Part shown: positions 18,235 to 63,262 of the stretch, piece by piece
How positions within the stretch are numbered: position 1 is the first letter of the stretch
Layout: each line of letters begins with the position of its first letter
DNA from: Hymenobacter sp. YIM 151500-1
GTDB lineage: Bacteria; Bacteroidota; Bacteroidia; Cytophagales; Hymenobacteraceae
NCBI RefSeq assembly: GCF_025979885.1
Contig: NZ_CP110139.1
Span: 744,001-808,000, forward strand
Length of the DNA: 64,000 bases
Direction of reading: 5' to 3'
The notes under the pieces: generated by a model
Told to the model about the DNA's origin: nothing
Database searches by the model: none
The model's input: the letters and a program-made list of their open reading frames with translations, nothing else
Made by a program: the position numbers and the translations under genes

Positions 18235-19446
18235 ATGTCCGCCAACCGCCGCTCTGCCCCATTCTACATGACTGCCACCACCCAGTTTGGGCTGGAAGAG
18301 GTGCTGGCCCAGGAGCTGCGCCAGCTGGGGGCGAAGATTGACCGGGTAGGCCAGCGGGCCGTGGAATTCACCGGCGACATGCAGCTGCTCTACGAAGCCT
18401 GCCTGTGGTGCCGCACGGCTATGCGCGTGCTGCGGCCCTTCGCCGGCTTCTACGCCCGCGACGAACGGGCCCTGTACCGCGAGGTAAGCCGCGTGGACTG
18501 GCAGCGGTTTATCCAGCCCGACCAAACCTTCGCCATTACGGCCGTCGTCAACAAGTCGTCGTTTGAGCACTCCTTATTCGTGGCCCAGCTCACCAAAGAC
18601 GCCATCGTGGACCAGTTCCGCCAGCGCCTCGGCCGCCGCCCCAGCGTAGACGTGAAGAACCCCGACATCCGCCTGCACCTGCACATGCTCGAAAACGAGG
18701 TGACCCTGAGCCTCGACGCCTCGGGCGAGTCGCTACACAAGCGCGGCTACCGCCAGCAAACCAACGTGGCGCCCCTGAATGAGGCCCTGGCCGCCGGTAT
18801 CCTGCTGCTTACCGGCTGGGACGGCCGCAAGACCCTCATCGACCCAATGTGCGGCTCGGGCACCTTCCTCACCGAAGCCGCCCTCATTGCCCAACGCATT
18901 GCGCCGGGCCTCTACCACCAGGGCAAGTTCGGCTTCGAGAACTGGCCCGACTTCGACGCGGCCCTCTGGGAATCGGTGCAGCTCGACGCCCGGCAGGCCC
19001 GCCTGGAGGAGCCCCAGGCCTACCTCGCCGGCTCCGACCTGTCCCGCGAATACATCGAGCTGGCCCGCCAAAACGTGGCCGCCGCCGACCTCGAAGACTT
19101 CATCCGCCTGGGTGTGCGCGACGTGCGCGAAGCCAAAGCCCCCGCTAAAGAAGCACCCGGCCTGGTCGTCATGAACCCGCCCTACGGCGAAAGAATCGGG
19201 GAGGAAGCCGAGATGGAAGCTCTCTACAAAACCATCGGCGACACGCTCAAAGCCGGCTTCCAGGGCTACGACGCCTACATCTTCACCGGCAACCTGGAAG
19301 CCGCCAAGCGCATCGGCCTGAAAGCCTCCCGCCGCATCCCCCTCTACAACGGCCCTATCGACTGCCGCCTGCTGAAGTTTGAGCTGTATCAGGGCACGCG
19401 GAAACCTCACCCCCTAGCCCCCTCTCCAAAAGAGAGGGGGGACTAG
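18235..19446 (+). CDS. THUMP-domain class I RNA methyltransferase (RlmL-N/TrmN-like)
   Basis: A 403-residue SAM-dependent RNA methyltransferase. The N-terminal ~170 residues form the THUMP part (FGLEEVLAQELRQLGAKI, later FQ-type RLGRRPSVDVKNPDIRLHLH and SLDASGESLHKRGYR). The catalytic domain has DPMCGSGTFLTEAALIA near residue 202, GSDLSREYIELARQN near 264, and NPPYGERIGEE near 312, which marks N6-adenine or N2-guanine methylation of rRNA or tRNA; the family includes RlmL (m2G2445). The final residues RKPHPLAPSPKERGD are encoded by the inverted-repeat element that starts at 19405, so the original C-terminus was probably shorter. Confidence 0.9.
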   Translation: MSANRRSAPFYMTATTQFGLEEVLAQELRQLGAKIDRVGQRAVEFTGDMQLLYEACLWCRTAMRVLRPFAGFYARDERALYREVSRVDWQRFIQPDQTFAITAVVNKSSFEHSLFVAQLTKDAIVDQFRQRLGRRPSVDVKNPDIRLHLHMLENEVTLSLDASGESLHKRGYRQQTNVAPLNEALAAGILLLTGWDGRKTLIDPMCGSGTFLTEAALIAQRIAPGLYHQGKFGFENWPDFDAALWESVQLDARQARLEEPQAYLAGSDLSREYIELARQNVAAADLEDFIRLGVRDVREAKAPAKEAPGLVVMNPPYGERIGEEAEMEALYKTIGDTLKAGFQGYDAYIFTGNLEAAKRIGLKASRRIPLYNGPIDCRLLKFELYQGTRKPHPLAPSPKERGD

Positions 19447-19629
19447 TTCTAGTTGTAGTTGCCTCACCCCAACCCCTCTCCGAAAAGGAGAGGGGCTCTA
19501 GTTGTAGTTTTTAGCTGACGTTCTTTCCACATTAATCATCCCCAACATCCTCAGCTGAGCAGGGGAGCTAGCCTCTAGTTCTAAAAGCTAGTTCCCCCTC
19601 TCTTTTGGAGAGGGGGCTAGGGGGTGAGG
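19405..19629. mobile_element. Non-autonomous cctcacc/ggtgagg inverted-repeat element (copy 2)
   Basis: The left end cctcaccccctagccccctctcc (19405 on) faces an inverted right end ggagagggggctagggggtgagg finishing at 19629. Adjacent inward are further inverted tracts (actagttctagttgtag against ctctagttctaaaagctagtt). An extra internal direct copy of the left palindrome lies at about 19464-19492. It has no ORF. It provides the last codons of the methyltransferase and sits 55 bp before the recQ promoter box. Confidence 0.75.
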
Positions 19630-19684
19630 TCCCCGGCACGATTTTCCGTTCGCCGTGGTTATTTCACCCCGCCCCGATTCGCCC

Positions 19685-19692
19685 TATCTTTA
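19685..19692 (+). promoter_or_regulatory. -7 box TATCTTTA of recQ
   Basis: TATCTTTA is one mismatch from TAnnTTTG and ends 4 nt before the chosen ATG of recQ, which predicts a leaderless or nearly leaderless message. Confidence 0.4.
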
Positions 19693-19696
19693 CCCC

Positions 19697-21952
19697 ATGT
19701 TATTTGCCGCCGAACCCCTCGCGCCTACCCTCGATTCTGCCCGCCGCGTCCTGAAGCAGTACTACGGCTACGATACCTTCCGGCCCATGCAGGAAGACAT
19801 CATCCAGAACATCCTCGGCGGCCAGGATACGGTGGTGCTCATGCCCACGGGCGGGGGCAAAAGCATCTGCTTCCAGGTGCCGGCCGTGGTGCGCGAGGGC
19901 GTGTGCGTGGTCGTCTCGCCGCTGATTGCCCTGATGAAAGATCAGGTGGAAGCCCTGAAAGCCAACGGCATCCAGGCCGCCTACATCAACAGTAGCATTG
20001 GGTCGAGTGAGCAAAACAACATCGCCGCCGATTGCCTCAATGGTTACCTCAAACTGCTCTACGTCTCGCCCGAAAAGCTCTTGTCGGAAGGGTTTATGAC
20101 CTTTCTCAAGCGGGTCAAGCTGAGCATGTTCGCCATCGACGAGGCCCACTGCATCTCGTCGTGGGGCCACGATTTCCGGCCCGAGTACACCCAGCTGCGG
20201 GTGCTGCGGGAGCAGTTTCCGCAGGTGCCCATCATTGCCCTCACCGCCACCGCCGACCGCCTCACCCAGCGCGACATTCAGCAGCAGCTGCGCCTGCGCG
20301 AGCCGCGGGTGTTTCTATCGAGCTTCGACCGGCCTAACCTTAACCTCATCGTGCGGCCAGGGCAGGACCGCATCAACGGCATTCTGGAGTTTCTGGAGCG
20401 CCACCAGGGCGAGGCGGGCATCATTTACTGCCTCTCGCGCAAGCAGTGCGAAACGCTGACTCAGAAAATCCAAGCTAAGGGCATCAAGGCGGGCTACTAC
20501 CACGCCGGCCTTACGCCTAACCAACGCGGGGCCGTGCAGGAGGCGTTTCTGAAGGATGACGTGCAGGTAATCGTGGCCACTATTGCCTTCGGCATGGGCA
20601 TCGACAAGAGCAACGTGCGCTGGGTGATTCACTACAACCTGCCCAAGAACATCGAAGGCTACTACCAGGAAATCGGCCGCGCGGGCCGCGACGGCAGCCC
20701 GGCCACCGCGGTGCTGTTCTATTCCTTCGGGGATGTGATGAGCCTGCGCGACATGCTCACCAAGGAAAACCCCAGCCTCACCCAGCTCAACCTCACCAAG
20801 CTGGAGCGCATGCAGCAGTTTGCCGAGGCTGCCTCCTGCCGCCGCAAAATCCTGCTCAACTACTTCGGCGAAACCCTAACCCAGGACTGCGGCAACTGCG
20901 ACATCTGCCGCAATCCGCCCACCACCTTCGACGGCACCGAGCTGGCCCAGAAAGCCCTGTCGGCCGTGGTGCGGGGCCGCGAGAAGCTCAGCATCAACCT
21001 GCTGATTGACGTGCTGCGCGGCATGCGCAACCAGGCCGTGCTCAGCGCTGGGCTAGACCAAATCAAAACCTACGGCGCCGGCCGCGACCTGCCCTACCTC
21101 GACTGGTACAGCTACATCCACCAGATGCTCAACGATGGCCTGCTGTACATTGCTTACGAGGAAGGCTACGCCCTAAAAATCACCGACCTCGGCCGCCAGG
21201 TGCTGCAAGGCCAGCGTCCCGTGTCCATGAAGAAGTTCCAGCCCGCCGAGAAGGCCGAAAAAGCCCCGCGCGGCCGCAAAGCGCAGTCGGCCCCGGCTGC
21301 GGCTCCCGCCACCCGCGAGGCCCAGCTGTTCGAGGCCCTGCGCACCCTGCGCAAGCGCATCGCCGACGAGCAAGGCGTGCCGCCCTACGTCATCTTCACC
21401 GACTCTACGCTCCAGGAAATGGCCGTGGAGCGGCCCGTCAACCGCACGGCCATGCTGGCCATTTCGGGCGTGGGCATGAAGAAATTTGAGACCTACGGCG
21501 AGGCCTTCATTCGCGAAGTGCTGGCCCACGGCGGCAACCCCGCCGCCCTGGACGAAGACGAGGATGCCGCCCCGCTGGCCGGTCTCGACCCCGATGACCC
21601 CGGCGCACCCCGCGCCCCGCGCAAACGGGAGGTGAACACCGAAGCCGGCGGCACCATCGACACCACCTACCAGCTGCACCGCCTGGGCCTGAGTGTGGAG
21701 GCCATTGCCGAACGCCGCGCCCTGGCCGTATCCACCGTGCAAACCCACCTGACCAACTGCTACGCCAAGGGCCTGGACCTGCGCATTGAGGAGTTTTTGA
21801 AGCCCGAGGAGCTGGCCGAAATCCAGACCGCCCAGGCCCAGCTCGGCGGCAGCCCCATGCTCCGCGACCTGTTCGACCACCTGCGCGAGAAATACGACTA
21901 CTTCAAGCTCCGCCTGGCCCTGATGTACTTCAAGAAGCTGCGCGGGGAGTAA
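19697..21952 (+). CDS. recQ: ATP-dependent DNA helicase RecQ
   Basis: A 751-residue 3'-5' DNA helicase for recombination and stalled fork repair. In order: FRPMQEDIIQ near residue 25, Walker A PTGGGKSICFQ near 50, DEAH box AIDEAHCISSWGHDFRPEY near 147, motif VI YQEIGRAGRDG near 322, the zinc-binding cysteines CRRKILLNYFGE...CGNCDIC near 380-402, then a winged-helix RQC region. A HRDC domain follows (VPPYVIFTDSTLQEMA, ISGVGMKKFETYGEAF), then a C-terminal HTH segment (HRLGLSVEAIAERRALAVST). All expected catalytic residues are present and length is normal for Bacteroidota RecQ. ATG 19697 fits the start of the family alignment. Confidence 0.95.
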   Translation: MLFAAEPLAPTLDSARRVLKQYYGYDTFRPMQEDIIQNILGGQDTVVLMPTGGGKSICFQVPAVVREGVCVVVSPLIALMKDQVEALKANGIQAAYINSSIGSSEQNNIAADCLNGYLKLLYVSPEKLLSEGFMTFLKRVKLSMFAIDEAHCISSWGHDFRPEYTQLRVLREQFPQVPIIALTATADRLTQRDIQQQLRLREPRVFLSSFDRPNLNLIVRPGQDRINGILEFLERHQGEAGIIYCLSRKQCETLTQKIQAKGIKAGYYHAGLTPNQRGAVQEAFLKDDVQVIVATIAFGMGIDKSNVRWVIHYNLPKNIEGYYQEIGRAGRDGSPATAVLFYSFGDVMSLRDMLTKENPSLTQLNLTKLERMQQFAEAASCRRKILLNYFGETLTQDCGNCDICRNPPTTFDGTELAQKALSAVVRGREKLSINLLIDVLRGMRNQAVLSAGLDQIKTYGAGRDLPYLDWYSYIHQMLNDGLLYIAYEEGYALKITDLGRQVLQGQRPVSMKKFQPAEKAEKAPRGRKAQSAPAAAPATREAQLFEALRTLRKRIADEQGVPPYVIFTDSTLQEMAVERPVNRTAMLAISGVGMKKFETYGEAFIREVLAHGGNPAALDEDEDAAPLAGLDPDDPGAPRAPRKREVNTEAGGTIDTTYQLHRLGLSVEAIAERRALAVSTVQTHLTNCYAKGLDLRIEEFLKPEELAEIQTAQAQLGGSPMLRDLFDHLREKYDYFKLRLALMYFKKLRGE

Positions 21953-52066: not shown

Positions 52067-55000
52067 CTACCGCGCGCAGATGCCTTTGTAGGGGCAATAC
52101 TGGCACTTGTCCAGGTCGTCGGTCTTGCGAATGGGCTCCTGCGGGTCCAGAATCCGGTTCACCAAACGGCTCAGCAGCTCCTCGCTGTGCCGCACAAAGT
52201 CCAGACCATCAGCCGTGAGGAAGCTCATGTCGGCCGACATGGGGCCGGCGGGCAGGTTACGCAGGGAAATGATGGCGGCGTCGGCGGCGGGGCGGCCGCC
52301 CTGGGCCAGCAGAAAGCGGTAGAGCCAGAGCTGGCGCACTTTGTCGGCCGAGGAAGTGGCGTCCTGGAGCAGGCGCTCCACGGCGTCGGCGGGGCCTTCG
52401 CCACGCTTGAGCAGGCGCAGGTCGTAGGGCTGCACAAGGCCGGTTTTGTAGTCCACCACCCGCAGGCGGCCGTCGGGGAGCTGGTCGACGCGGTCGGCGA
52501 AGCCGACAAGGCTCACCGGCAGCTTTTCGCCGCTGGGCAGGGGCACGTACACGGTAGCTTGCAGGGCTTCTTCCTGGCTTTGGATGAGCAAGGGTAGGGC
52601 TTCGGGTTGCTCCAGCAGGCTTTCCAGGTAGCGGCGCACCAGCTGGCTGGCCACCTGGCCCAGCACGTGGTTCAGCCCCTCGTCGGCGCGGGCGTGGCGG
52701 CCGGCTTCTTCGCGGCGCAGGGCTTTGGCCACCATCACCGGCGCCAGCTTAAGCAGGCCCAGAATATCGGCGGCTGTAACAGGCTGCCTGCTGCTTACAA
52801 AGGGCTTAAACAGCTCCTCCAGCGCCTCGTGTACCACCGTCCCAAACCCATCCGGCCCCAGGGCTTCCTCCACCTCGTCGTTCTCCCGAAACCGCGCCAC
52901 CCGCTGAAAATAAAACTGCAAAGAGCAGTTCAGGTACTGGTTCAAGGCCGTGGGGGAGAGGCCCTTGGTCAGCACGTCCCGCAGCGCATCGAGCATGCCG
53001 GCGTCTTTTTCCAGTACAATGTCGCCGGGGGCATGGACCTCACCCCCTAGCCTCCTGCCGTTCGCCTCACCCCCCCGGCCCCCCTCTCCGAAAAAGGAGA
53101 GGGGGGAGCCTGACGTCTTTTTAGAGCTAGAGCTAGTACTTTCTAGAGCTACTTCCCCCTCTCCCTCCGGAGAGGGGGCTAGGGGGTGAGGCCAACTAGA
53201 GCTAGAAGCTGAGGTCACCGTTAAGTCCTCCAACACCAAACCAGGACTCTGGGGGCGCAGGTCGTTTTCGATTTGGAGCAGGAAGCGGCTCCGCTCGCCG
53301 GTGCGGGTGCCTTCGGCGCCGGGCAGGATGTGGAGCAAATCAACCTGGCGGGCGCGCTGCAACAGGCGCCAGAACTGGTGGGCGGTGGCGGCTTCGTGGT
53401 CGGCGTAGGTGGGCAGCTGGAAGGTGGTCAGCACGTCGTACGGGAACAGGGAGCTGTGGCGCTTGGGCGCCGGCAGCACGTTCTCGTTGCAGCTCAGGAT
53501 GATGAGGTGGTCGAAATCAAGGGCGCGGGTTTCCAGCAGGCCCATTACCTGCACATCGGCAATGGGCTCCCCACTAAAGGGTAGGCGGGTGGCCTTCATC
53601 TGCTCGTACAAGAACCGCCGGAAGGAGCGCACCGACAGCCGCTGCTCCCGGCAGTCGAACACCGAGTCCAGGCGCTTGACCAAGGTAAAAAACAGGTACA
53701 GGTACTCGGCCTCCACGGCCGAGTGCTGGTCCTGGTAGGCCTTTTTGAGCAGGTCGATGAGGGTGTAGCAGGCCCGGATGATGTCGTCGCAGTTGTTCCA
53801 GGTGGCAAACAGGGCCTCCAGCAGCGGGTGCCCCCGCCCGATTTCGACCAGCTCCTCGGCCGGCAGCAGCACGGCGTGGCGCTGCACGATGGTGCGGCAC
53901 ACTTGGTCGAGCAAGCCGTGATGCTGTTCCTCGGGCTGCTGGTCGAGCCAACGCTGGTAGCGGCGCAGAAACGGGTGCTGAAGCAGCTTGCTCACGGCCA
54001 GGTGGTGGTAGCGCGGCACGCCGTAGCCGGTTTCGGGCGAGCCTTCGCGCACGCCCGTCAGGTGCACCTCAAACAGCAGATCAACCAGGTTGAACAGGGG
54101 CGTGCTCTGGAAGTTGAGGCCCATGGTCACGTTGTATTCCGGCACGGCGTCCGGGGGCAGGCCGTGCAGCACGGGCAGCAGCAGGGTTTCGTCGGGCAGC
54201 ACCACGGCCACTTTGGCGGTGGGCGCCAGGCGCCGCGACTCGGCCAGGAGCTGCCCGGCCACCTTGCCCTGCATGGAGGCGTTGGCCACGCCCACGAAGC
54301 GCACGTGGCGCGGCAGCCCCCGCAGCAGCTCGGCCGGCCCCCCGAAGTTCTCGCGGGGCAAGTCGAGCAGGTCCTGGTAGCGGCGCAGGTGCTGGCCGGC
54401 CCGGTTGGGCGAGCTTTTTTCCAGGTAAAAGGCGTCACCGTCGAAGTGCACCTCCGCGAGGCCGGCTTTGCGCAAGAGGCGCAAGAGCTTTTCTTCGGAC
54501 TTCGACAGAAAGCCCAAGCCCAGGAACACGTGGTGGGGTAGGGTTTCGCCAGCTTCCAGGCGGGCTTGCACGCGGTTTACGCCCAGGCGGTAGGCCAGGC
54601 CGGGGTAGGCGAGGTGGTCGTGCTCCATGCGGCGGCGCAGGCGGCGGTACACCTTCTCCAGGTCGTCCCAGAAGCGGAAGTAGGCGGCCGTGGTGCTCTG
54701 CGGAGCCGGCTCGGCGGTCAGCTCCCAGCGCTCCAGGGCCTTGGCCTGGCTCAGGTACTCGAACACCTTGCGCGGGGAGGCCAAGTTCTGGTCGAGGTTG
54801 GAGAAGTCCTGGAGCAGCAGGCCGGCCCAGCCCACAAACTGGTCGAAGTCGAGCTTGGCGTCGATGTCGCGCAGAATCTCGAACAGCAGCAGTTGCAAGG
54901 CAATGGGCTCCTCCACCTGCACGCCGGCCAGCTCCACCATGTAGTCTTCCATGGCCGCGATGCGCGGGCTCCACAGGGCCTGCCCGGCGTCGGCGGCCAG

Positions 55001-55189
55001 GCTCAGCTCGTTCTGCAAGTATACTACCGCCCGGCGCGTGGGCACCACCACCACCAGGTCCGACAGCTCGTCGGTGGGGCCGTAGCGGGCCACCAGCTCC
55101 CGCGCCATCCGCGTGAGAAAAGGCGTGGCATCGGGTAGGGCTGAGGCAGGAGCAGCAGCAGAAACGGGAGCGGCGGGCGAGACTATCAT
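52067..55189 (-). CDS. AddB-like helicase-nuclease subunit with Fe-S type PD-(D/E)XK domain
   Basis: A 1040-residue subunit of a predicted AddAB/RecBCD-type end-processing complex. The N-terminal half holds a degenerate helicase fold (LVVVVPTRRAVVYLQNELS in place of Walker A; VMGLLETRALDFDHLIILSC). The C-terminus is a PD-(D/E)XK exonuclease: FGTVVHEALEEL and LRVVDYKTG. Iron-sulfur cysteines are visible in LNCSLQFYF (near residue 753) and the last CQYCPYKGICAR, as in AddB and Cas4. Between the two halves, residues ~667-709 (PHPLAPSP...FGEGGRGGE) are encoded by an in-frame mobile repeat at 53064-53192; flanking Ser-rich and GRRLGGEV residues look like further repeat remains. ATG 55189 follows a promoter box. 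Confidence 0.88.
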   Translation of the reverse strand: MIVSPAAPVSAAAPASALPDATPFLTRMARELVARYGPTDELSDLVVVVPTRRAVVYLQNELSLAADAGQALWSPRIAAMEDYMVELAGVQVEEPIALQLLLFEILRDIDAKLDFDQFVGWAGLLLQDFSNLDQNLASPRKVFEYLSQAKALERWELTAEPAPQSTTAAYFRFWDDLEKVYRRLRRRMEHDHLAYPGLAYRLGVNRVQARLEAGETLPHHVFLGLGFLSKSEEKLLRLLRKAGLAEVHFDGDAFYLEKSSPNRAGQHLRRYQDLLDLPRENFGGPAELLRGLPRHVRFVGVANASMQGKVAGQLLAESRRLAPTAKVAVVLPDETLLLPVLHGLPPDAVPEYNVTMGLNFQSTPLFNLVDLLFEVHLTGVREGSPETGYGVPRYHHLAVSKLLQHPFLRRYQRWLDQQPEEQHHGLLDQVCRTIVQRHAVLLPAEELVEIGRGHPLLEALFATWNNCDDIIRACYTLIDLLKKAYQDQHSAVEAEYLYLFFTLVKRLDSVFDCREQRLSVRSFRRFLYEQMKATRLPFSGEPIADVQVMGLLETRALDFDHLIILSCNENVLPAPKRHSSLFPYDVLTTFQLPTYADHEAATAHQFWRLLQRARQVDLLHILPGAEGTRTGERSRFLLQIENDLRPQSPGLVLEDLTVTSASSSSWPHPLAPSPEGEGEVALESTSSSSKKTSGSPLSFFGEGGRGGEANGRRLGGEVHAPGDIVLEKDAGMLDALRDVLTKGLSPTALNQYLNCSLQFYFQRVARFRENDEVEEALGPDGFGTVVHEALEELFKPFVSSRQPVTAADILGLLKLAPVMVAKALRREEAGRHARADEGLNHVLGQVASQLVRRYLESLLEQPEALPLLIQSQEEALQATVYVPLPSGEKLPVSLVGFADRVDQLPDGRLRVVDYKTGLVQPYDLRLLKRGEGPADAVERLLQDATSSADKVRQLWLYRFLLAQGGRPAADAAIISLRNLPAGPMSADMSFLTADGLDFVRHSEELLSRLVNRILDPQEPIRKTDDLDKCQYCPYKGICAR
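53064..53192. mobile_element. In-frame cctcacc/ggtgagg element (copy 3) inside the AddB-like gene
   Basis: Left end 53064-53115 (gcctcacccccccggcccccc...gagcctgacg) and inverted right end 53151-53192 finishing ggggtgaggc; each end also has its own ggagaggg/ccctctcc palindrome. The core holds a small tagagctagagctagt/ctagagct palindrome. Total 129 bp (43 codons), read as protein on the minus strand without a stop. A second, degenerate cctcaccccctagcc start lies just before it at 53037-53052. Confidence 0.85.
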
Positions 55190-55195
55190 ACCGGG

Positions 55196-55203
55196 TAAAG
55201 GTA
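55196..55203 (-). promoter_or_regulatory. -7 box TACCTTTA of the addB-like gene
   Basis: TACCTTTA, one mismatch from TAnnTTTG, ends 6 nt before the ATG at 55189. Confidence 0.4.
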
Positions 55204-55282
55204 ACGCCGGCCGGGTCGGAAACAGTTTCGCTACGGAAAGCCCGGCGGTTATCTTGCGCGGGATTCGCAACCTACATCAGCC

Positions 55283-57677: not shown

Positions 57678-58943
57678 CTACGAATGCCCGGCGCCGACCA
57701 TCGTTCCCGGTGCGGCTTCCTGGGGAGCAGGCGCCACGTAGCCCCGCAACGACCGGATGGCCATCAGCAGACTGACCACCGTAAGCATGGCCCCGGTCAG
57801 GAAGGCGGCGCCGGGGAAATGCACGGGCGCTTTGGGGCCAGTGAAGAAGGAAAATAGATTGGTCATCAGCGGCGGTCCGATGATGGAAGTGAGGCTGACC
57901 AGGCTGGTCAGCGCGCCTTGCAGCTCGCCCTGCTCCGAGGGTGGCACCTGCCCCGACATAATCCCTTGCAAGGCCGGCACCGCAATGCCGCCCAGGCAGT
58001 AGGGCACCAAAAACGCAAACATCATCCACCCGTGGGTGGCAAAGGCAAACAGCGTGAAGCCCACCGCGTACAGCCCCAGTCCCAGCAGCACCGAGCGTTT
58101 CATGCCCAGCCGCGGGGCCGAGTAGCGTATCAATACGCCCTGCACCAGGCCCGAGAGCAGGCCCACCGCGCCCAGCGAGTTGCCCACCTGGTCTTCGGTC
58201 CAGCCGAAGCGGTACATGGTGAAGTACGACCAGGTGCCTTGCGTGGCGTGGGAGGCAATGTAGATGGGCACCAGCGCGCCCACCAGTCCCAAAATCACGG
58301 GGTACTTGCGCAGCTGCCGCAACGAGCCGATGGGGTTGGCCCGCTTCCAGTCGAAGGGGCGGCGCTGCTCCTTGGGCAAGGACTCGGGCAGCACGAAGAA
58401 GCCGTAGAGCCAGTTGAGCAGGGTAAGACCCGCGGCGGCCAGAAACGGCGCCTGGTGCCCAAACTGCGCCAGCTTGCCGCCCAGCACCGGCCCGATGATG
58501 AAGCCCATGCCAAAGGCCGCCCCAATCATGCCGAAGTTCTGCGCCCGGTTTTCGGGCGTGCTGATGTCGGCAATGTAGGCCGAGGCCGTGGTGAAGCTGG
58601 CCCCGGTGATGCCCGCCACAATGCGCCCCACAAACAGCCACCCGATGCTGGGCGCAAAGGCCAGAAACAGGTAGTCGATGCCGAAGCCGAACAGAGCCGT
58701 GAGCAGTACCGGCCGCCGGCCGTACTGGTCGGACAGGTTGCCCAGCACCGGCGAAAAGAAAAACTGCATCGAGGCAAAGGCAAACATCATCCACCCCCCG
58801 TAGCGCGAGGCATCCGACAGCGTACCGCCGGTGAGATGGGTAATCAGCTTGGGCAGCACCGGAATGATGATGCCAAACCCAATTACATCGAGCAGCAGCG
58901 TGATAAAGATGAAGGCCAGAGCTGGCTTGCGGGCAAGGGACAT
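57678..58943 (-). CDS. TCR/Tet-family MFS efflux transporter
   Basis: A 421-residue 12-helix transporter. It resembles TetA-type drug:H+ antiporters: [24 protein letters not shown] (D in helix 1), motif [15 protein letters not shown], the helix-5 motif [16 protein letters not shown] and [23 protein letters not shown]. Drug resistance is not implied, as these carriers are frequent housekeeping exporters in Cytophagales. ATG 58943 (MSLARKPAL) was chosen and a TATTTTCG box precedes it. The rhomboid gene is 44 bp downstream on the same strand. Confidence 0.9.
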
Positions 58944-58984
58944 GGCAAAGCAAAAAGGAGGCGCCGAAAATACAGAATTGCGGT

Positions 58985-59190
58985 GGGGGTGAGGTGACGG
59001 GTAACACGTGACAGGTGACAGGAGGAACGTCATGCTGAGCGAAGCCGAAGCATCTCTCCCGCTTCGTTGCAGTGCTATCCAGACAAAGCGGTAGAGATGC
59101 TTCAACTGCGGCTACGCCTCCGCTCAGCATGACCGTTCTACTTGTCACCTGTCACCTGTCACCTGTCACTCATCACCTCTTCACCATTTC
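58985..59190. repeat. CGAAGCATCTCT repeat with GTGACAGG arms
   Basis: Outer arms: gggtgaggtgacgggtaacacgtgacaggtgacagg (58987-59022) and its inverse run of gtcacctgtcacctgtcacc (59143-59185). Inside, gtcatgctgagcgaagccgaagcatctctcccgcttcg (59030-59067) faces gcggtagagatgcttcaactgcgg...gctcagcatgac (59089-59132). It lies between the AddA-like stop and the transporter promoter. Confidence 0.75.
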
Positions 59191-59200
59191 ACCTGAAAAA

Positions 59201-62200
59201 TCAAAACTCCACTACCTCTTGCGTGTCAAAGTAGTACAGCACGCAGCGCACTTCCTCGAAGCCTAGCCGCCGGAACAGCTCGGCGTAGCGTTGCAGGGGG
59301 AGGCGGTGGCGGGGCTCGGGGGGCGGGGCTTTGAAGTCGAGGAGGGTGACGCGGCGGCCGGTGCCACCGGGGGCTGCCTCAAACACGATTCGGTCGGGCT
59401 TGTAGTCCTGCTTGCGGGTGCCGCCTACCAGGATTTCGCGCTCGGCCTCGGCCTGCACCTGCTCCGAGAAGTAGTGGGCCATTTGCGGGTGCTCGGTTAC
59501 TTCGTGCAGCTTGCGCAGCAGCTCAGCCCGCTCCTTGGTGCTCACCAGGCCCTCGGCTACCAGCTGCTGGGCGGCGCGGGGGGCGTCGGCGGCTACTTTC
59601 ACCCGGCGCAGGGCGTAGTGCAGCTTGCGGTTCCACTCGCGCTGCTCCTGCTGCTCGTCGAAGTCGAACACCGTGTTGGCGTGGCGCTTCAGGCGCAGGC
59701 GCTCTTCCCAGGGCGTACTTTCCAGGTTGGTGAGAGGTAGGTCGTCGGTGGTTTTTGGGTGGTGGTTTTTAGGTTTTGGCACGAAGCCGCGGGCGTCGCA
59801 CAGCACATAGGCCATCTGCTCGTCGTGCCAGCGGCCGGTGTCCAGCAGGTAGCGGTGCAGCAGCTCGGCCACGGTGCGGGCCGGCTCGGTGGAAGCAGTG
59901 GGGGCCTCACCGTCTTTGCCGGCCTTGGTGGGCTTGGGGCGGCGGCTGATGGCGTAAAGGCGGTGGCGGGGGCGGGTGAAAGCCACGTAGAGCATGTTGA
60001 GGCCTTCCAAGAAGGTTTTTTCCAGCTCCTCGGTGTACTGTCCGGCCAAGGGCGTGTGCAGCAGGGCCTGGGTTTGGGGCAGCACCGCCACGCCGGGCAT
60101 GTCGGCCACGGGCTTGTCGGCGGCCGCGGCCAGGCGGCCCCAGAGCAACGTGCCGCGGTAGGGCGTCAGGGGCCAGTCGGCGAAGGGCACCAGCACTACG
60201 CCGTAGGCCAGGCCCTTGGCTTTGTGCACGGTGGTGATGGTAATAGCGTCGCGGCCGGCGGGGGCGTTGATGCTCAGGCTGCTCTTCTTCTGGTCCCAAT
60301 AAGCCAGGAAGTTGTTGAGGTTGTTGCCGAAGCGCAGGCTGTACTCCAGGGTCAGGTCCAGAAACCGGAACAGGTACTCCTGCTCCTCGGTGCGGTGCAG
60401 CAGGCCAAACAAGCCAATCAGCCGCTCGGTCAGCTCATATAGGCCCAGGTTGCCGGTTTCCCGCTCCCGCAGGTCGTAGCCCAGGGCGCGCAGCTCGTCG
60501 AAGAAGGGCAGAGCCGCCTCGGCGTTGGCCAGCTCGGCCCAGTGGCGGGCCCTTTCGGGTGTGGGGTCCAGGCCCCGCACCACCCGATCCACAAGCAGCA
60601 GGGCCTCGGCCCGCGCCAGCGTGTCGGCCGGTTGGTTGAGCACCCGAAACAACGCCACCAGCAGGTTCACCACCTCGGCAAACTCCAACGACAGCGAATC
60701 AGCCGAAATAATGTCGTAGCCCCGCTCCTTCAGAAACTTGGCCACCCGCCGGCTCTGGTCGCGGCGCCGGCACAGCACGGCCACGTCCTGCAACCGGAAC
60801 CCATCGGCCAACACGCGCTCCACGAGCTGTAAGGTCAGGTACAGGGTGCTTTCGTCGTAGTCCAGAGCCTGCCCCGGCGCATACCCCGGCAGCAGCTCCG
60901 GCGTGAACGTGCCCAGCCCCGCATCGTAGCGGCAGGCCGGCGCGTCGTCCTCGGTGAAGAGCAGCTCGACGTGGGCCTCACCCCCCCGGCCCCCCTCTCC
61001 CGCGGAGAGGGGGGAGCCTGACGATTCTGGCAGCGCAGTCCTTTCGGCTTGGGCCTCAAGAACTGCTACCGCTTCGTTTTCTTCCTTGTGTGCTGATGGT
61101 TGTGGCTTTGTTTGGGCGAGGCGCTGCTGGATTGCTTGTAGAACCTGAGGAAGTTGGTGCAACACTTCATTGTTGTGGAAGCGCAGCACCTGATAGCCTA
61201 GCTGGGACAACTCGTGGGTACGGCCGTCGTTATATTCAGCCTGACTTGTCTCCCCATGCACGTCGCCATCTACTTCTACCACAAGGCTGTGCGGAATGCA
61301 GATAAAATCAACGATAAACTTCCCAATGATGTGTTGACGCTGGAATTTCACGCCTAGCTGATTATTTCGCAACGCTTGCCACAGAACATCCTCTACTTGG
61401 GTAGGATGACGCCGCATTTCCTGCGAAAACGCCGAAGTTTTTTCCCAGGAGCTAGCATCAGCAGTAAGTACAAACTCGCCAACCGTTCCCCCTTGCGGCT
61501 CAAAACTTTCGTGTGCGAAGCCATTGCCGGTAGCCTCGGCCCAAGCCGAGGCGTTTGGAGCCGTCTGGCTCCCCCTCTCCACGGGAGAGGGGGCCGGGGG
61601 GTGAGGCTCCCGCTGCGCAAATCCCTCATCATAAATGCCTTGCACCAGCGGAAGCTGGGGGTGGGTCTGGCTGATGTGGCGGAAAAAGTCGTTGTTGAAG
61701 CGGATGATGCCGGCGGCGGAGCGGTAGTTGACGGTGAGGCTGGCCGGCTCCAGGGTTTGGTCGAGGGTGAGGTAGCGGCCGGCCAGTAGCTCGCGCAGCT
61801 CCAGGTCCTGCACAGAGGCGTAAAGGTGCTCGGTCTGGTTTTGGTAGAGGCGCAGAATCTGCTCCATCTCGCCCCCGCGCCAGCGGTAGATGGCCTGCTT
61901 GGCGTCGCCCACGGCCAGGCTAAGGTGGCCGCCCGCCACGGCGTTTTCCACCAGCGGCAGCAGGTTGTTCCATTGCAGCACCGAGGTATCCTGGAACTCG
62001 TCGATGAGCAGGTGCTGATATTTCTCGCCCATTCGCTCGTACAGGAACGGCACCGGCTCGCGCAGCACAATCTGGGCAATGCGGCGGTTGAACTCGGCAA
62101 TCAGCACCACGCCCCGCTCCCGGCTGAGCTGGTCCACGGCCTTGTTCAGCTCGCTCAGCAGGCTCACCTGAAACACGTAGGGCAACATGCCGGTCACCAG

Positions 62201-63232
62201 CAGGTAGTCGGGCAGCAGGGTGGCGCGCAGCTTTTCCAGGGTTTCGTAGGCCGTGAGCAGCACGGGCTTCACGGCGTCCACGCGGGCCTTGTCGGCGGTG
62301 GTTTTTACCTTGCTGCTGTACCACTTATCCTGCTCCACGGTGGCCCGCACGTAGGTATTAGCCTCCTTGTCGGGCTGCAGGCGCTCCTCCCACTTGCTCA
62401 CGTAGCCCAGCAGCCCGCTGCGGCCCTGGTACAGGTCCGAGTCCGTAACGCCGGCTTCCTCCACGGCCGCCACCGCCAGCTCCGCCACCTGCCGAAAGGC
62501 ATCCTCGATTTCCTGCTTGCGCTGCCGCAGCCCCTCGTGCAGGCGGCGGTAGTCGGCCAGGCTTAGCTTCTGGAGCTGCTCCACGGCCTCGTGCACCGGC
62601 TCACTCAGCAGAAACTGCCCAAACTCGACCAGCTCGGCGGGCAGGTTGTTCCAGCTGCGGCCTTCGTCGGCTTTAGACAGGGCAAAATCGGAGATGGTGC
62701 GGGAGAGGAGCTTGGCGTTCGGGTCGCGGTTGACGCGGTCCAGCAGCAAGGCCACGGCGCTTTGCAGCACGGTGGCGCTGTCCAGCTCCACTTCAAACGT
62801 GGCGGGCAGGCCCAACTCCCGCGTAAACGCCGTCACGATGCGCTGCACAAACGAGTCGATGGTGCTCACGGCAAAGTCGGCGTAGTGGTAGAGCACCAGC
62901 CGAAACGTGCGCCCCGCCCGCTCCCGCAAAAGCTGCTGGCGCTGCTCGGGCGTGGCCTGAGCCGTCAGCGTGCCTTCGGCCGCCAGCTCCGCGGCAATTT
63001 CGGCCAGCAGCGTATCGGGCTCGTTGTCAGGTGGGTACGCAAACCGCCGCAGGGACCCGATGATGCGCTCCTTCATCTCGCCCGCTGCGTCGTTGGTAAA
63101 CGTAATGGCCAGGATGCGCTTGAAGTAGCTGGGGTCGTCGGCGCCCAGGGCCAGCTTCAGGTATTCCTTGGTGAGCTGGTACGTTTTGCCGGAGCCGGCG
63201 GAAGAGGAGTAGATGCGGAAGGTGGCAGGCAT
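59201..63232 (-). CDS. AddA-like UvrD/RecB helicase-nuclease carrying an inserted DUF559 domain
   Basis: A 1343-residue ATP-dependent helicase-nuclease of the AddA/RecB type. Motifs: Walker A YSSSAGSGKTYQLTKEY near residue 10, LIDEFQDTSVLQWNNL, GDAKQAIYRWRGGE, LTVNYRSAAGIIRF (motif IV, near 505), motif V TTVHKAKGLAYGVVL near 1000, FTRPRHRLYAI, and a C-terminal nuclease with PDRIVFE and LLDFKAPPPE near 1300. Residues ~542-752 are foreign: they are encoded by a 633-bp inverted-repeat element and contain a complete DUF559 nuclease domain. Without this, length is near the family norm of ~1130. ATG 63232 gives MPATFRIYSSS. It should act with the AddB-like protein 4 kb away. Confidence 0.9.
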   Translation of the reverse strand: MPATFRIYSSSAGSGKTYQLTKEYLKLALGADDPSYFKRILAITFTNDAAGEMKERIIGSLRRFAYPPDNEPDTLLAEIAAELAAEGTLTAQATPEQRQQLLRERAGRTFRLVLYHYADFAVSTIDSFVQRIVTAFTRELGLPATFEVELDSATVLQSAVALLLDRVNRDPNAKLLSRTISDFALSKADEGRSWNNLPAELVEFGQFLLSEPVHEAVEQLQKLSLADYRRLHEGLRQRKQEIEDAFRQVAELAVAAVEEAGVTDSDLYQGRSGLLGYVSKWEERLQPDKEANTYVRATVEQDKWYSSKVKTTADKARVDAVKPVLLTAYETLEKLRATLLPDYLLVTGMLPYVFQVSLLSELNKAVDQLSRERGVVLIAEFNRRIAQIVLREPVPFLYERMGEKYQHLLIDEFQDTSVLQWNNLLPLVENAVAGGHLSLAVGDAKQAIYRWRGGEMEQILRLYQNQTEHLYASVQDLELRELLAGRYLTLDQTLEPASLTVNYRSAAGIIRFNNDFFRHISQTHPQLPLVQGIYDEGFAQREPHPPAPSPVERGSQTAPNASAWAEATGNGFAHESFEPQGGTVGEFVLTADASSWEKTSAFSQEMRRHPTQVEDVLWQALRNNQLGVKFQRQHIIGKFIVDFICIPHSLVVEVDGDVHGETSQAEYNDGRTHELSQLGYQVLRFHNNEVLHQLPQVLQAIQQRLAQTKPQPSAHKEENEAVAVLEAQAERTALPESSGSPLSAGEGGRGGEAHVELLFTEDDAPACRYDAGLGTFTPELLPGYAPGQALDYDESTLYLTLQLVERVLADGFRLQDVAVLCRRRDQSRRVAKFLKERGYDIISADSLSLEFAEVVNLLVALFRVLNQPADTLARAEALLLVDRVVRGLDPTPERARHWAELANAEAALPFFDELRALGYDLRERETGNLGLYELTERLIGLFGLLHRTEEQEYLFRFLDLTLEYSLRFGNNLNNFLAYWDQKKSSLSINAPAGRDAITITTVHKAKGLAYGVVLVPFADWPLTPYRGTLLWGRLAAAADKPVADMPGVAVLPQTQALLHTPLAGQYTEELEKTFLEGLNMLYVAFTRPRHRLYAISRRPKPTKAGKDGEAPTASTEPARTVAELLHRYLLDTGRWHDEQMAYVLCDARGFVPKPKNHHPKTTDDLPLTNLESTPWEERLRLKRHANTVFDFDEQQEQREWNRKLHYALRRVKVAADAPRAAQQLVAEGLVSTKERAELLRKLHEVTEHPQMAHYFSEQVQAEAEREILVGGTRKQDYKPDRIVFEAAPGGTGRRVTLLDFKAPPPEPRHRLPLQRYAELFRRLGFEEVRCVLYYFDTQEVVEF
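60975..61607 (-). mobile_element. In-frame DUF559-carrying cctcacc/ggtgagg element (copy 4) inside the AddA-like gene
   Basis: Ends 60975-61023 and 61562-61607 are inverted repeats of each other over about 46 nt (gcctcacccc..cggcccc..ctctcccg..ggagagggg..gagcc.gacg). The interior is visibly less GC-rich than the host gene and encodes a nuclease domain. The length is 633 bp, exactly 211 codons, and the minus-strand host frame reads through it: PHPPAPSPVERGSQT at entry and SGSPLSAGEGGRGGE at exit. No clear target duplication was found. Confidence 0.9.
61118..61417 (-). other. DUF559 (Vsr-like) endonuclease domain within the element
   Basis: Encodes 100 residues from MRRHPTQVEDVLWQALRN, an in-frame Met at 61417 (host residue 606), to QAIQQRL. 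It keeps all family landmarks: FQRQHIIGKFIVDFICIP with the metal-binding Asp (host residue 642), LVVEVDGDVHG with Glu653, Asp655 and His659, and YQVLRFHNNEVLHQLPQVL. DUF559 shares the fold of the very-short-patch-repair endonuclease Vsr. The intact catalytic set suggests an active nuclease, read as part of AddA or from the internal ATG. Confidence 0.85.
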
Positions 63233-63262
63233 TGGAGAAAAAACAAGCGTAGCGCGAGCCAA

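What the first reader, a model, noticed from the sequence alone, without database searches (positions are those of the whole stretch)
60975..61607. In-frame inverted-repeat element carrying a complete DUF559 endonuclease inside an AddA-like gene
Seen: 46-nt inverted ends, 633 bp = 211 codons, no stop in the host frame, lower GC than the host, and a full DUF559 nuclease domain with all acidic/His positions. It sits ~35 residues after helicase motif IV, where a surface loop is expected. Known: Vsr-like and DUF559 nucleases cut DNA; inteins and homing endonucleases live in frame in conserved genes; Rickettsia palindromic elements insert in frame into proteins. Inferred: this is a new class, a palindrome-ended element that spreads as protein-coding insert with its own nuclease, in the very gene that repairs DNA breaks. 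No intein splicing motifs were seen, so the domain should stay in the mature protein.
Basis: partly seen in the sequence, partly recalled or inferred. Interest (0 to 1): 0.93.

Follow-up and report, generated by a model that had tools for sequence, protein, structure and literature searches.

The report
Palindrome-ended nuclease cassette inside housekeeping genes
A 633-base stretch that encodes a predicted DNA-cutting domain and ends in mirror-image repeats sits in frame inside an addA-like DNA-repair gene of a Hymenobacter; DUF559 cassettes, many with the same kind of ends, also sit in or fused to unrelated housekeeping genes across Bacteroidota, and they likely spread as selfish DNA by a cut-and-copy process that is still untested.

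Summary
In detail: the insert (60975-61607) has 49/46-nt inverted arms, 211 open codons and a complete DUF559 domain. Of 61 genus genomes 58 lack it in their AddA-like protein, 2 have it, 1 is undetermined. The arms belong to a dispersed palindrome family (165 exact-pattern copies here). All 5 DUF559 loci of this genome and 101 of 114 genus loci have matching inverted arms, against 0 of 919 control windows. Arms and nuclease lineage correlate between different sites (rho 0.69; only 0.19 within the main arm class). DUF559 cassettes interrupt or extend AddA, AddB, RecQ, RecG, PurQ, MetH, LeuRS, methylmalonyl-CoA mutase, MazG and others. At purQ, unlike cassettes sit in near-identical hosts. The predicted fold matches Vsr and homing endonuclease I-Bth0305I. 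RAYTs have the same geometry but other palindromes. No intein or intron match, no target duplication. Best reading: a mobile, non-splicing, palindrome-ended nuclease element, probably spread by homing-like copying. Recurrence is shown, mobility well supported, mechanism inferred.

The parts
59201..63262 (-). Host gene: AddA/RecB-like helicase ORF, 1353 aa including the insert
   Evidence: Pfam UvrD-helicase and UvrD_C on both sides of DUF559; NCBIfam AddA/RecB-like helicase models match, below their cut-offs
60975..61607 (-). Cassette: 633 bp, in frame, bounded by inverted palindromic arms
   Evidence: absent from 58 of 61 genus genomes, present in 2, undetermined in 1
60975..61023 (+). Arm at the C-terminal side of the insert, 49 nt, hairpin with CGC loop (homopolymer runs 7-6-6)
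61562..61607 (-). Arm at the N-terminal side of the insert, 46 nt, hairpin with CGT loop (homopolymer runs 6-5-5)
61118..61438 (-). DUF559 (PF04480) domain, predicted Vsr-fold nuclease, host residues 609-715; conserved E, H, D, E, D, H and R positions are kept
   Evidence: E 3.5e-32; invariant columns over 54 sequences; AlphaFold model and PDB matches
52067..55270 (-). AddB-like ORF, 1067 aa, with a DUF559-less palindrome doublet in frame at the loop where 4 other genus genomes carry a DUF559 cassette
   Evidence: identity from PDDEXK_1 in the cassette-bearing homologue L131
53038..53193 (.). In-frame doublet in the AddB-like gene (arms 53063-53089 + and 53169-53193 -, plus a degenerate repeat at 53038-53058)
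19403..19631 (.). Palindrome doublet directly upstream of recQ, the site of DUF559-RecQ fusions in other species; its first arm also ends the upstream ORF
19655..21952 (+). recQ (recurrent target of the family; only the doublet lies here in this genome)
   Evidence: Pfam and NCBIfam of the fused homologue L127
9883..9907 (+). Solitary copy of the arm repeat

Best explanation
The insert is one copy of a family of palindrome-ended DUF559 nuclease cassettes that recur, often in frame, at the same and at unrelated genes, and that likely spread as selfish DNA by a homing-like cut-and-copy driven by the encoded, predicted Vsr-fold endonuclease. Shown here: the anatomy, absence from most orthologues, recurrence in unrelated host genes, correlation of nuclease lineage with arm sequence, unlike cassettes in near-identical hosts at one site, purifying selection on the nuclease, and no match to known splicing elements. 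Inferred: the cassette is translated as an internal, N-terminal or C-terminal part of the host protein and stays there; the host supplies promoter and ribosome site; the arms code for Pro/Gly/Ser-rich linkers that the host tolerates; the nuclease cuts DNA at or near the palindromes or at empty target loops; break repair copies the element in; DUF559-less doublets are non-autonomous derivatives.
For: AddA-like: 58 of 61 genus genomes lack the insert, 2 have it, 1 undetermined. Inverted arms: 101 of 114 genus DUF559 loci score >=45, against at most 34 in 1000 shuffles and 0 of 919 tiled windows. Nuclease identity and arm similarity correlate over pairs at different sites: rho 0.69, permutation maximum 0.18, 0 of 499 (101 elements, 4430 pairs). 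In-frame hosts: AddA, AddB, RecQ, PurQ, MetH; LeuRS, another class I synthetase, MetH; methylmalonyl-CoA mutase, RecG, DegT, two epimerases, MazG, PolyA_pol. Of 80 named loci (best of 555) 50 are internal, 6 C-terminal and 5 N-terminal in a longer frame, 19 stand alone. purQ: host and nuclease distances nearly uncorrelated (rho 0.11, 26 loci); PurQ proteins 97.7% identical carry nucleases 55.8% identical. dN/dS median 0.33, 0 of 154 pairs >=1. Profile and fold matches to I-Bth0305I and Vsr. No intein or intron match.
Against: Most of the arm-nuclease correlation is between two broad arm classes: within the main class (81 elements, 2725 pairs) rho is 0.19 (permutation maximum 0.13, 0 of 499), within the smaller one (20 elements) 0.61 with 2 of 499 permutations as high. 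Left and right flanks of different loci also match (median 53.5 in 400 mismatched pairs, orthologous loci included), since the arms are one repeat family, and among 400 random windows in AddA loci the highest score was 76. No target-site duplication; no exact nucleotide-level empty site. At purQ, the 8 of 30 loci read that have a cassette lack the native tail and spacer; the 22 without keep them. Two of 6 addA copies are out of frame. Repeats persist without DUF559 (G024 57, G087 35), and repeat number also correlates with RAYT number (rho 0.40 against 0.53). Strong arms at only 44 of 80 named and 12 of 25 phylum loci. 105 of 114 genus loci fall in site groups of two or more, so part of the pattern is inheritance. 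Cleavage was not tested.
Confidence: 0.58

Rival explanations
1. The cassette is a passenger: the palindromes are REP-like repeats moved by another enzyme, such as a RAYT (Y1 transposase), and DUF559 was merely captured between two repeats.
For: Doublets look like REPINs; repeat number correlates with RAYT number (rho 0.40); some genomes have repeats without DUF559; within the main arm class nuclease and arm similarity are only weakly correlated (rho 0.19).
Against: 0 of 33 RAYT loci carry these repeats within 1.5 kb. RAYTs are flanked by their own, different palindromes, many with a GGTAG end. DUF559 loci are flanked at 101 of 114 sites, and the nuclease is under purifying selection.
Confidence: 0.2
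2. The nuclease domains are domesticated accessory domains (repair or defence) that entered a few host genes once and were inherited; the palindromes are decoration or regulatory hairpins.
For: Recurrent sites (purQ, recQ, addA, addB); purifying selection; several hosts are repair helicases or nucleases (AddA, AddB, RecQ, RecG).
Against: Patchy presence (2 of 61 in addA); unlike cassettes in near-identical hosts at one site; many hosts with no known repair or defence role; no PADLOC match for the two proteins tested.
Confidence: 0.13
3. The insert is removed after transcription or translation (an uncharacterised intein, an intron, or ribosome bypass across the paired arms), so that the host protein is restored.
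For: Inverted arms could bring the junctions together in mRNA; some hosts, such as LeuRS, should be essential (essentiality recalled); 2 of 6 addA copies are out of frame.
Against: No intein family in the Pfam or NCBIfam rows shown, no intron in Rfam for 8 loci; internal copies keep the frame open through both arms in most cases seen; C-terminal fusions end at a stop inside the element.
Confidence: 0.09

Closest known systems
Rickettsia palindromic elements (RPE)
   Same: Palindromic elements that insert in frame into unrelated protein genes (review PMC10969869, passages read)
   Different: RPEs are about 150 bp with a conserved short peptide; the passages read mention no encoded nuclease. Here full elements are mostly 500-750 bp (96 of 101) and carry DUF559; DUF559-less doublets exist beside them. 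No sequence comparison with RPEs was made.
REPIN-RAYT systems
   Same: Inverted palindrome doublets dispersed in the genome plus a gene flanked by matching inverted palindromes; RAYTs in this genus show the same geometry. REPIN and REP papers were seen as search listings only.
   Different: The gene encodes a predicted Vsr-fold nuclease, not a Y1 HUH transposase; the palindrome family differs; many copies lie in frame inside genes.
EDxHD homing endonuclease I-Bth0305I (PDB 3r3p) and inteins with homing domains
   Different: No intron or intein splicing part found; bounded by palindromes; in AddA it lies in a variable loop, in PurQ, MetH and RecQ of Hymenobacter at gene ends; no long DNA-binding extension seen.
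Vsr and solitary DUF559 nucleases (E. coli Vsr, PDB 3hrl, Caulobacter VsrA)
   Same: Same fold and DUF559 domain
   Different: VsrA is described as a stand-alone protein with a proposed mismatch-repair role (PMC12907096, passages; the term palindrom does not occur in its text).

Membership tests
DUF559 (PF04480) nuclease | Pfam profile match over the curated cut-off | tested here: met
   111 bits against cut-off 20.6
DUF559 / Vsr-fold nuclease | Conserved acidic and His positions and fold | tested here: met
EDxHD homing endonuclease | Fold and sequence relation to I-Bth0305I | tested here: met
EDxHD homing endonuclease | Cuts the cassette-free allele and is copied into it | not testable with these tools
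   Only indirect: unlike cassettes in near-identical purQ hosts
Intein | Splicing (Hint) domain or intein motifs | tested here: not met
   No intein family among the Pfam (26 proteins) or NCBIfam (4 proteins) rows shown (of 27 NCBIfam families for RecQ 25 were shown)
Group I/II intron | Rfam intron structure | tested here: not met
   8 loci searched at gathering threshold; the only match is a SAM riboswitch in L220
REPIN-RAYT | Inverted palindrome doublets and a palindrome-flanked gene | tested here: met
   31 convergent, 0 divergent and 6 same-strand neighbours among the first 100 of 165 sites
REPIN-RAYT | Y1 (HUH) transposase as the flanked gene | tested here: not met
   The gene is DUF559; 0 of 33 Y1 loci carry these repeats
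Rickettsia palindromic element | In-frame insertion into unrelated protein genes | tested here: met
Rickettsia palindromic element | About 150 bp, one of ten RPE sequence families | tested here: inconclusive
   Full elements 502-856 bp; doublets of 115-387 bp overlap in size; RPE sequences were not compared
Insertion sequence / MITE | Target-site duplication | tested here: not met
   No clear excess of direct repeats of 3 nt or more at boundaries of 73 elements (of 101; the rest had no clear boundary motif) and 31 doublets (one 4-nt match against 0.05 expected); 2-nt matches were in excess (18 against 7.3; 16 against 10.6), as flanks are alike

The most novel reading that the evidence does not exclude
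DUF559 nucleases are the mobilising enzymes of a whole superfamily of bacterial palindromic repeats (Bacteroidota, with like arms seen in Cyanobacteriota, Deinococcota and Sphingomonas): a second, RAYT-independent REPIN-like system whose autonomous copies travel as translated, non-splicing inserts inside housekeeping proteins, and which would supply the missing enzyme for RPE-like coding palindromes.
Probability: 0.36. Interest if true: 0.94.

Novelty: categorically new. Interest (0 to 1): 0.87.

Why it matters
The familiar elements that live inside conserved genes rely on splicing (introns, inteins); the known exception, RPEs, has no known enzyme (recall). This family seems to persist in frame without splicing, in enzymes such as LeuRS, MetH, PurQ and recombination helicases. 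It gives a candidate enzyme for the spread of a large class of orphan palindromic repeats and makes the question of how coding palindromes spread directly testable. It also warns annotators: many DUF559 fusions may carry a mobile insert, not a native domain.

Tried and rejected
RAYT as mover of these repeats: none of 33 Y1 loci has them. Y1 loci do have inverted arms of their own (20 of the 29 with enough flank score >=45); this first looked like a failed negative control and turned out to be a positive control, since the sequences are other REPs.

Target-site duplication: none convincing. Instead, flanks outside CCTCACC are inverted repeats that match within an element (6-nt matches in 12 of 73 against 0.7 expected; 9 of 31 against 0.9), so the true ends reach further out or pair. 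Not resolved.

Clean nucleotide-level empty sites: the AddA loop is too variable; in the 20-kb AddA regions the doublet of the AddB-like gene has about 100 bp of unlike sequence in relatives; purQ lost its tail. A LeuRS test in Mucilaginibacter could not be centred on that genome.

CTAG enrichment in doublets (23 per kb against 0.8 per kb outside repeats in the window) suggested a Vsr-like recognition site (CTWGG, recalled); it concerns the CTAG-type doublets and was not pursued.

Literature: full-text searches showed no paper on DUF559 with inverted repeats or as a mobile in-frame cassette in the rows listed (14 papers hold the word DUF559; only one of them was opened, by passages). The library lacks most subscription journals and bioRxiv. 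The I-Bth0305I paper and the second RPE paper are not held.

Rows dropped before counts: L039, a duplicate of L004 (115 to 114 loci); of 29 purQ loci L098, L174 and L071 left out of the tree; three phylum loci and four Y1 loci with too little flank; L072 and L098 lie on two contig ends of one genome and may be one locus. The 114 loci are those that I fetched, not all matches.

Full report
1. The observation. The AddA-like ORF (59201-63262, -, 1353 aa) contains a 633-bp stretch bounded by inverted arms of 49 and 46 nt. It is open in the host frame, lower in GC (0.567 against 0.667 and 0.642) and holds a full DUF559 domain (E 3.5e-32, residues 609-715). UvrD-type helicase domains lie on both sides. 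NCBIfam calls the host AddA/RecB-like, below its cut-offs, so I write AddA-like.

2. It is an insert. In 61 genus genomes (own included) the AddA-like protein is found in all 61. Two (G000, G003) align across the insert. In 58 the two halves are adjacent, with at most 181 bp between them. In one (G028, 82% complete) only the C-terminal half is listed. The cassette-free loop reads, for example, YDEHFGQETPGGSEAGHVELLF. Outside that sample, G064, G079, G091 and G092 also carry it, at slightly different residues of the same loop. Two of the six copies (G003, G091) are out of frame. In G009 the same loop holds a DUF559-less palindrome doublet in frame.

3. The ends are a genome-wide repeat. The pattern CCTCACCCCC-N(0-8)-CCCCCTCTCC occurs 84 + 81 times in this genome; the reversed control gives 0. 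Among the first 100 listed of these 165 sites there are 31 convergent neighbour pairs under 700 bp, 0 divergent and 6 same-strand pairs; the median span is 162 bp. Across 101 genus genomes 90 have the pattern. Copy number correlates with DUF559 number (Spearman 0.53) and less with Y1 transposase number (0.40); partial values are 0.49 and 0.34. This is not corrected for kinship, and each cassette itself adds two repeats. Some genomes have many repeats and no DUF559 (G024 57, G087 35).

4. DUF559 and the arms go together. All 5 DUF559 loci of this genome have matching inverted arms (scores 89, 51, 70, 67, 93), of three different arm sequences. DUF559 occurs in 87 of 101 genus genomes. I fetched 114 distinct loci, not every match. 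Of these 101 have an arm score of 45 or more and 9 are under 35; the maximum of 1000 shuffles is 34. Tiled control windows: 0 of 919 reach 45. In an earlier control 400 random windows in AddA loci had a 95th percentile of 26 and a maximum of 76, and 400 mismatched left-right pairs a median of 53.5, because the arms are one repeat family and some loci are orthologous. As a positive control, Y1 (RAYT) loci reach 45 in 20 of 29 cases with quite different palindromes, and 0 of 33 have the DUF559-type repeats. Elements with strong arms are 502-856 bp, 96 of 101 between 500 and 750.

5. Nuclease and arms. For 101 elements and only pairs at different genomic sites (4430 pairs), nuclease identity correlates with arm similarity at rho 0.69; the highest of 499 permutations is 0.18. 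Most of this separates two broad arm classes. Within the CCTCACC-like class (81 elements, 2725 pairs) rho is 0.19 (permutation maximum 0.13, 0 of 499 as high); within the CCCCTCCT-like class (20 elements, 163 pairs) it is 0.61, with 2 of 499 permutations as high. The nuclease of the AddA cassette of G064 is nearest, among other sites, to that of the AddB cassette of G081 (75% identity).

6. Many hosts. In Hymenobacter: PurQ C-terminal fusion, RecQ N-terminal fusion, MetH C-terminal fusion, AddA and AddB internal. The site groups hold 29, 15, 11 (4 of them fused to MetH), 6 and 4 loci; 105 of 114 loci fall in groups of two or more (the grouping needs only one similar flank ORF, so it may lump). 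56 of 114 loci lie in frames of 350 aa or more. With rough cut-offs 50 of 80 are internal to a longer frame, 6 C-terminal, 5 N-terminal and 19 stand alone; 44 of 80 have strong arms, 24 of the 50 internal ones. Pfam names the hosts that I scanned: LeuRS (at several positions), another class I synthetase (L280; IleRS by recall of DUF5915), MetH (internal), methylmalonyl-CoA mutase, RecG, DegT aminotransferase, two sugar epimerases, MazG and a PolyA polymerase head domain. MetH of L220 and RecQ of L127 score above NCBIfam cut-offs despite the insert (TIGR02082 1773.7 against 1010.85; TIGR01389 733.6 against 640.2). In a phylum sample 138 of 247 genomes have DUF559; 12 of 25 loci tested there have strong arms. 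Arms of other sequence flank DUF559 on plasmids of Pseudanabaena (score 128), Deinococcus (98), Sphingomonas (48) and, weakly, Picosynechococcus (34), not in Photobacterium (16).

7. Exchange at one site. At purQ, 26 of 29 loci with usable host sequence show almost no correlation of host and nuclease distance (rho 0.11). L105 and L069 have PurQ 97.7% identical but nucleases 55.8% identical with different arm types, while PurQ proteins 85% identical (L084, L088) carry nucleases 91% identical. The arm types need 9 changes on the host tree (least possible 4); only 3 of 23 inner branches are strongly supported. The purQ event was not a clean insertion: in the 30 best-scoring loci read, the 8 with a cassette lack the native tail and spacer and the 22 without one keep them. 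A likely reading is one old insertion with deletion, followed by cassette-for-cassette replacement.

8. In the window itself three target sites of the family are occupied: AddA by a full cassette, the AddB-like gene (52067-55270) by an in-frame doublet at the loop that holds DUF559 in G002, G009, G081 and G090, and the start of recQ (19655) by a doublet where others have a DUF559-RecQ fusion. Of 31 doublets read, 9 (8 sites, as one site gives two overlapping doublets) lie stop-free inside frames with at least 60 residues on both sides.

10. Mechanism. Shown: anatomy, patchy presence, recurrence, arm-nuclease correlation with the limits given, unlike cassettes in like hosts, selection, and no match to intein or intron families. 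Inferred: translation as part of the host protein without splicing, DNA cutting, and copying by break repair. The hairpin-forming ends, with pairs matched inside but not between elements, hint that a folded single strand is involved, as proposed for REPs (recall), but this was not tested.

11. Comparison. It works like RPEs (in-frame palindromes; PMC10969869, passages), like REPIN-RAYT (doublets plus a flanked gene) and like homing endonucleases (fold, residence in conserved genes). It fails a tested defining feature of inteins, introns, REPIN-RAYT and IS/MITEs. For EDxHD homing endonucleases the fold relation is met and homing itself could not be tested; for RPEs the sequence was not compared. 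I file it as a kind of its own because the combination (palindromic ends, Vsr-fold nuclease, non-splicing in-frame residence) appears in none of them; a reader who counts RPEs or homing elements as the parent kind may call it a new variant. My literature searches covered only the held library.

Noticed in passing
L145 (G091) and L059 (G003), addA: Two of six addA cassettes are out of frame, perhaps at the homopolymer runs of the arms; slippage there could switch the host gene on and off, or these may be assembly errors or decaying copies.
   Followed up: partly
window 58984-59186: A different inverted repeat (39-nt arms, 82% complementary, GTGACAGGTGACAGG core) with further inverted pairs inside it, beside the ORF 57678-59105 and before addA.
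   Followed up: no
L007 and L009 (G000 C1 near 1500 and 12760): Doublets of 385-387 bp whose interior contains GCCGCGTAGCGG-type palindromes like those flanking RAYTs: one palindrome family nested in another.
   Followed up: no
window and 31 doublets: CTAG is under-represented in the window (68 seen, 138 expected) but dense in doublets (23 per kb); the recognition site of Vsr is CTWGG (recalled).
   Followed up: partly
L027, L320, L328 and others: Locus-specific inverted repeats of up to about 17 nt lie outside the conserved arm, as if elements sat at the centre of a longer palindrome.
   Followed up: partly
window 18235-19446: The ORF upstream of recQ (403 aa) ends in an arm-encoded tail RKPHPLAPSPKERGD: a coding end supplied by the palindrome.
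   Followed up: no
L036 and L038 (G000): Two RAYT-like loci are flanked by very long inverted repeats (scores 205 and 215).
   Followed up: no
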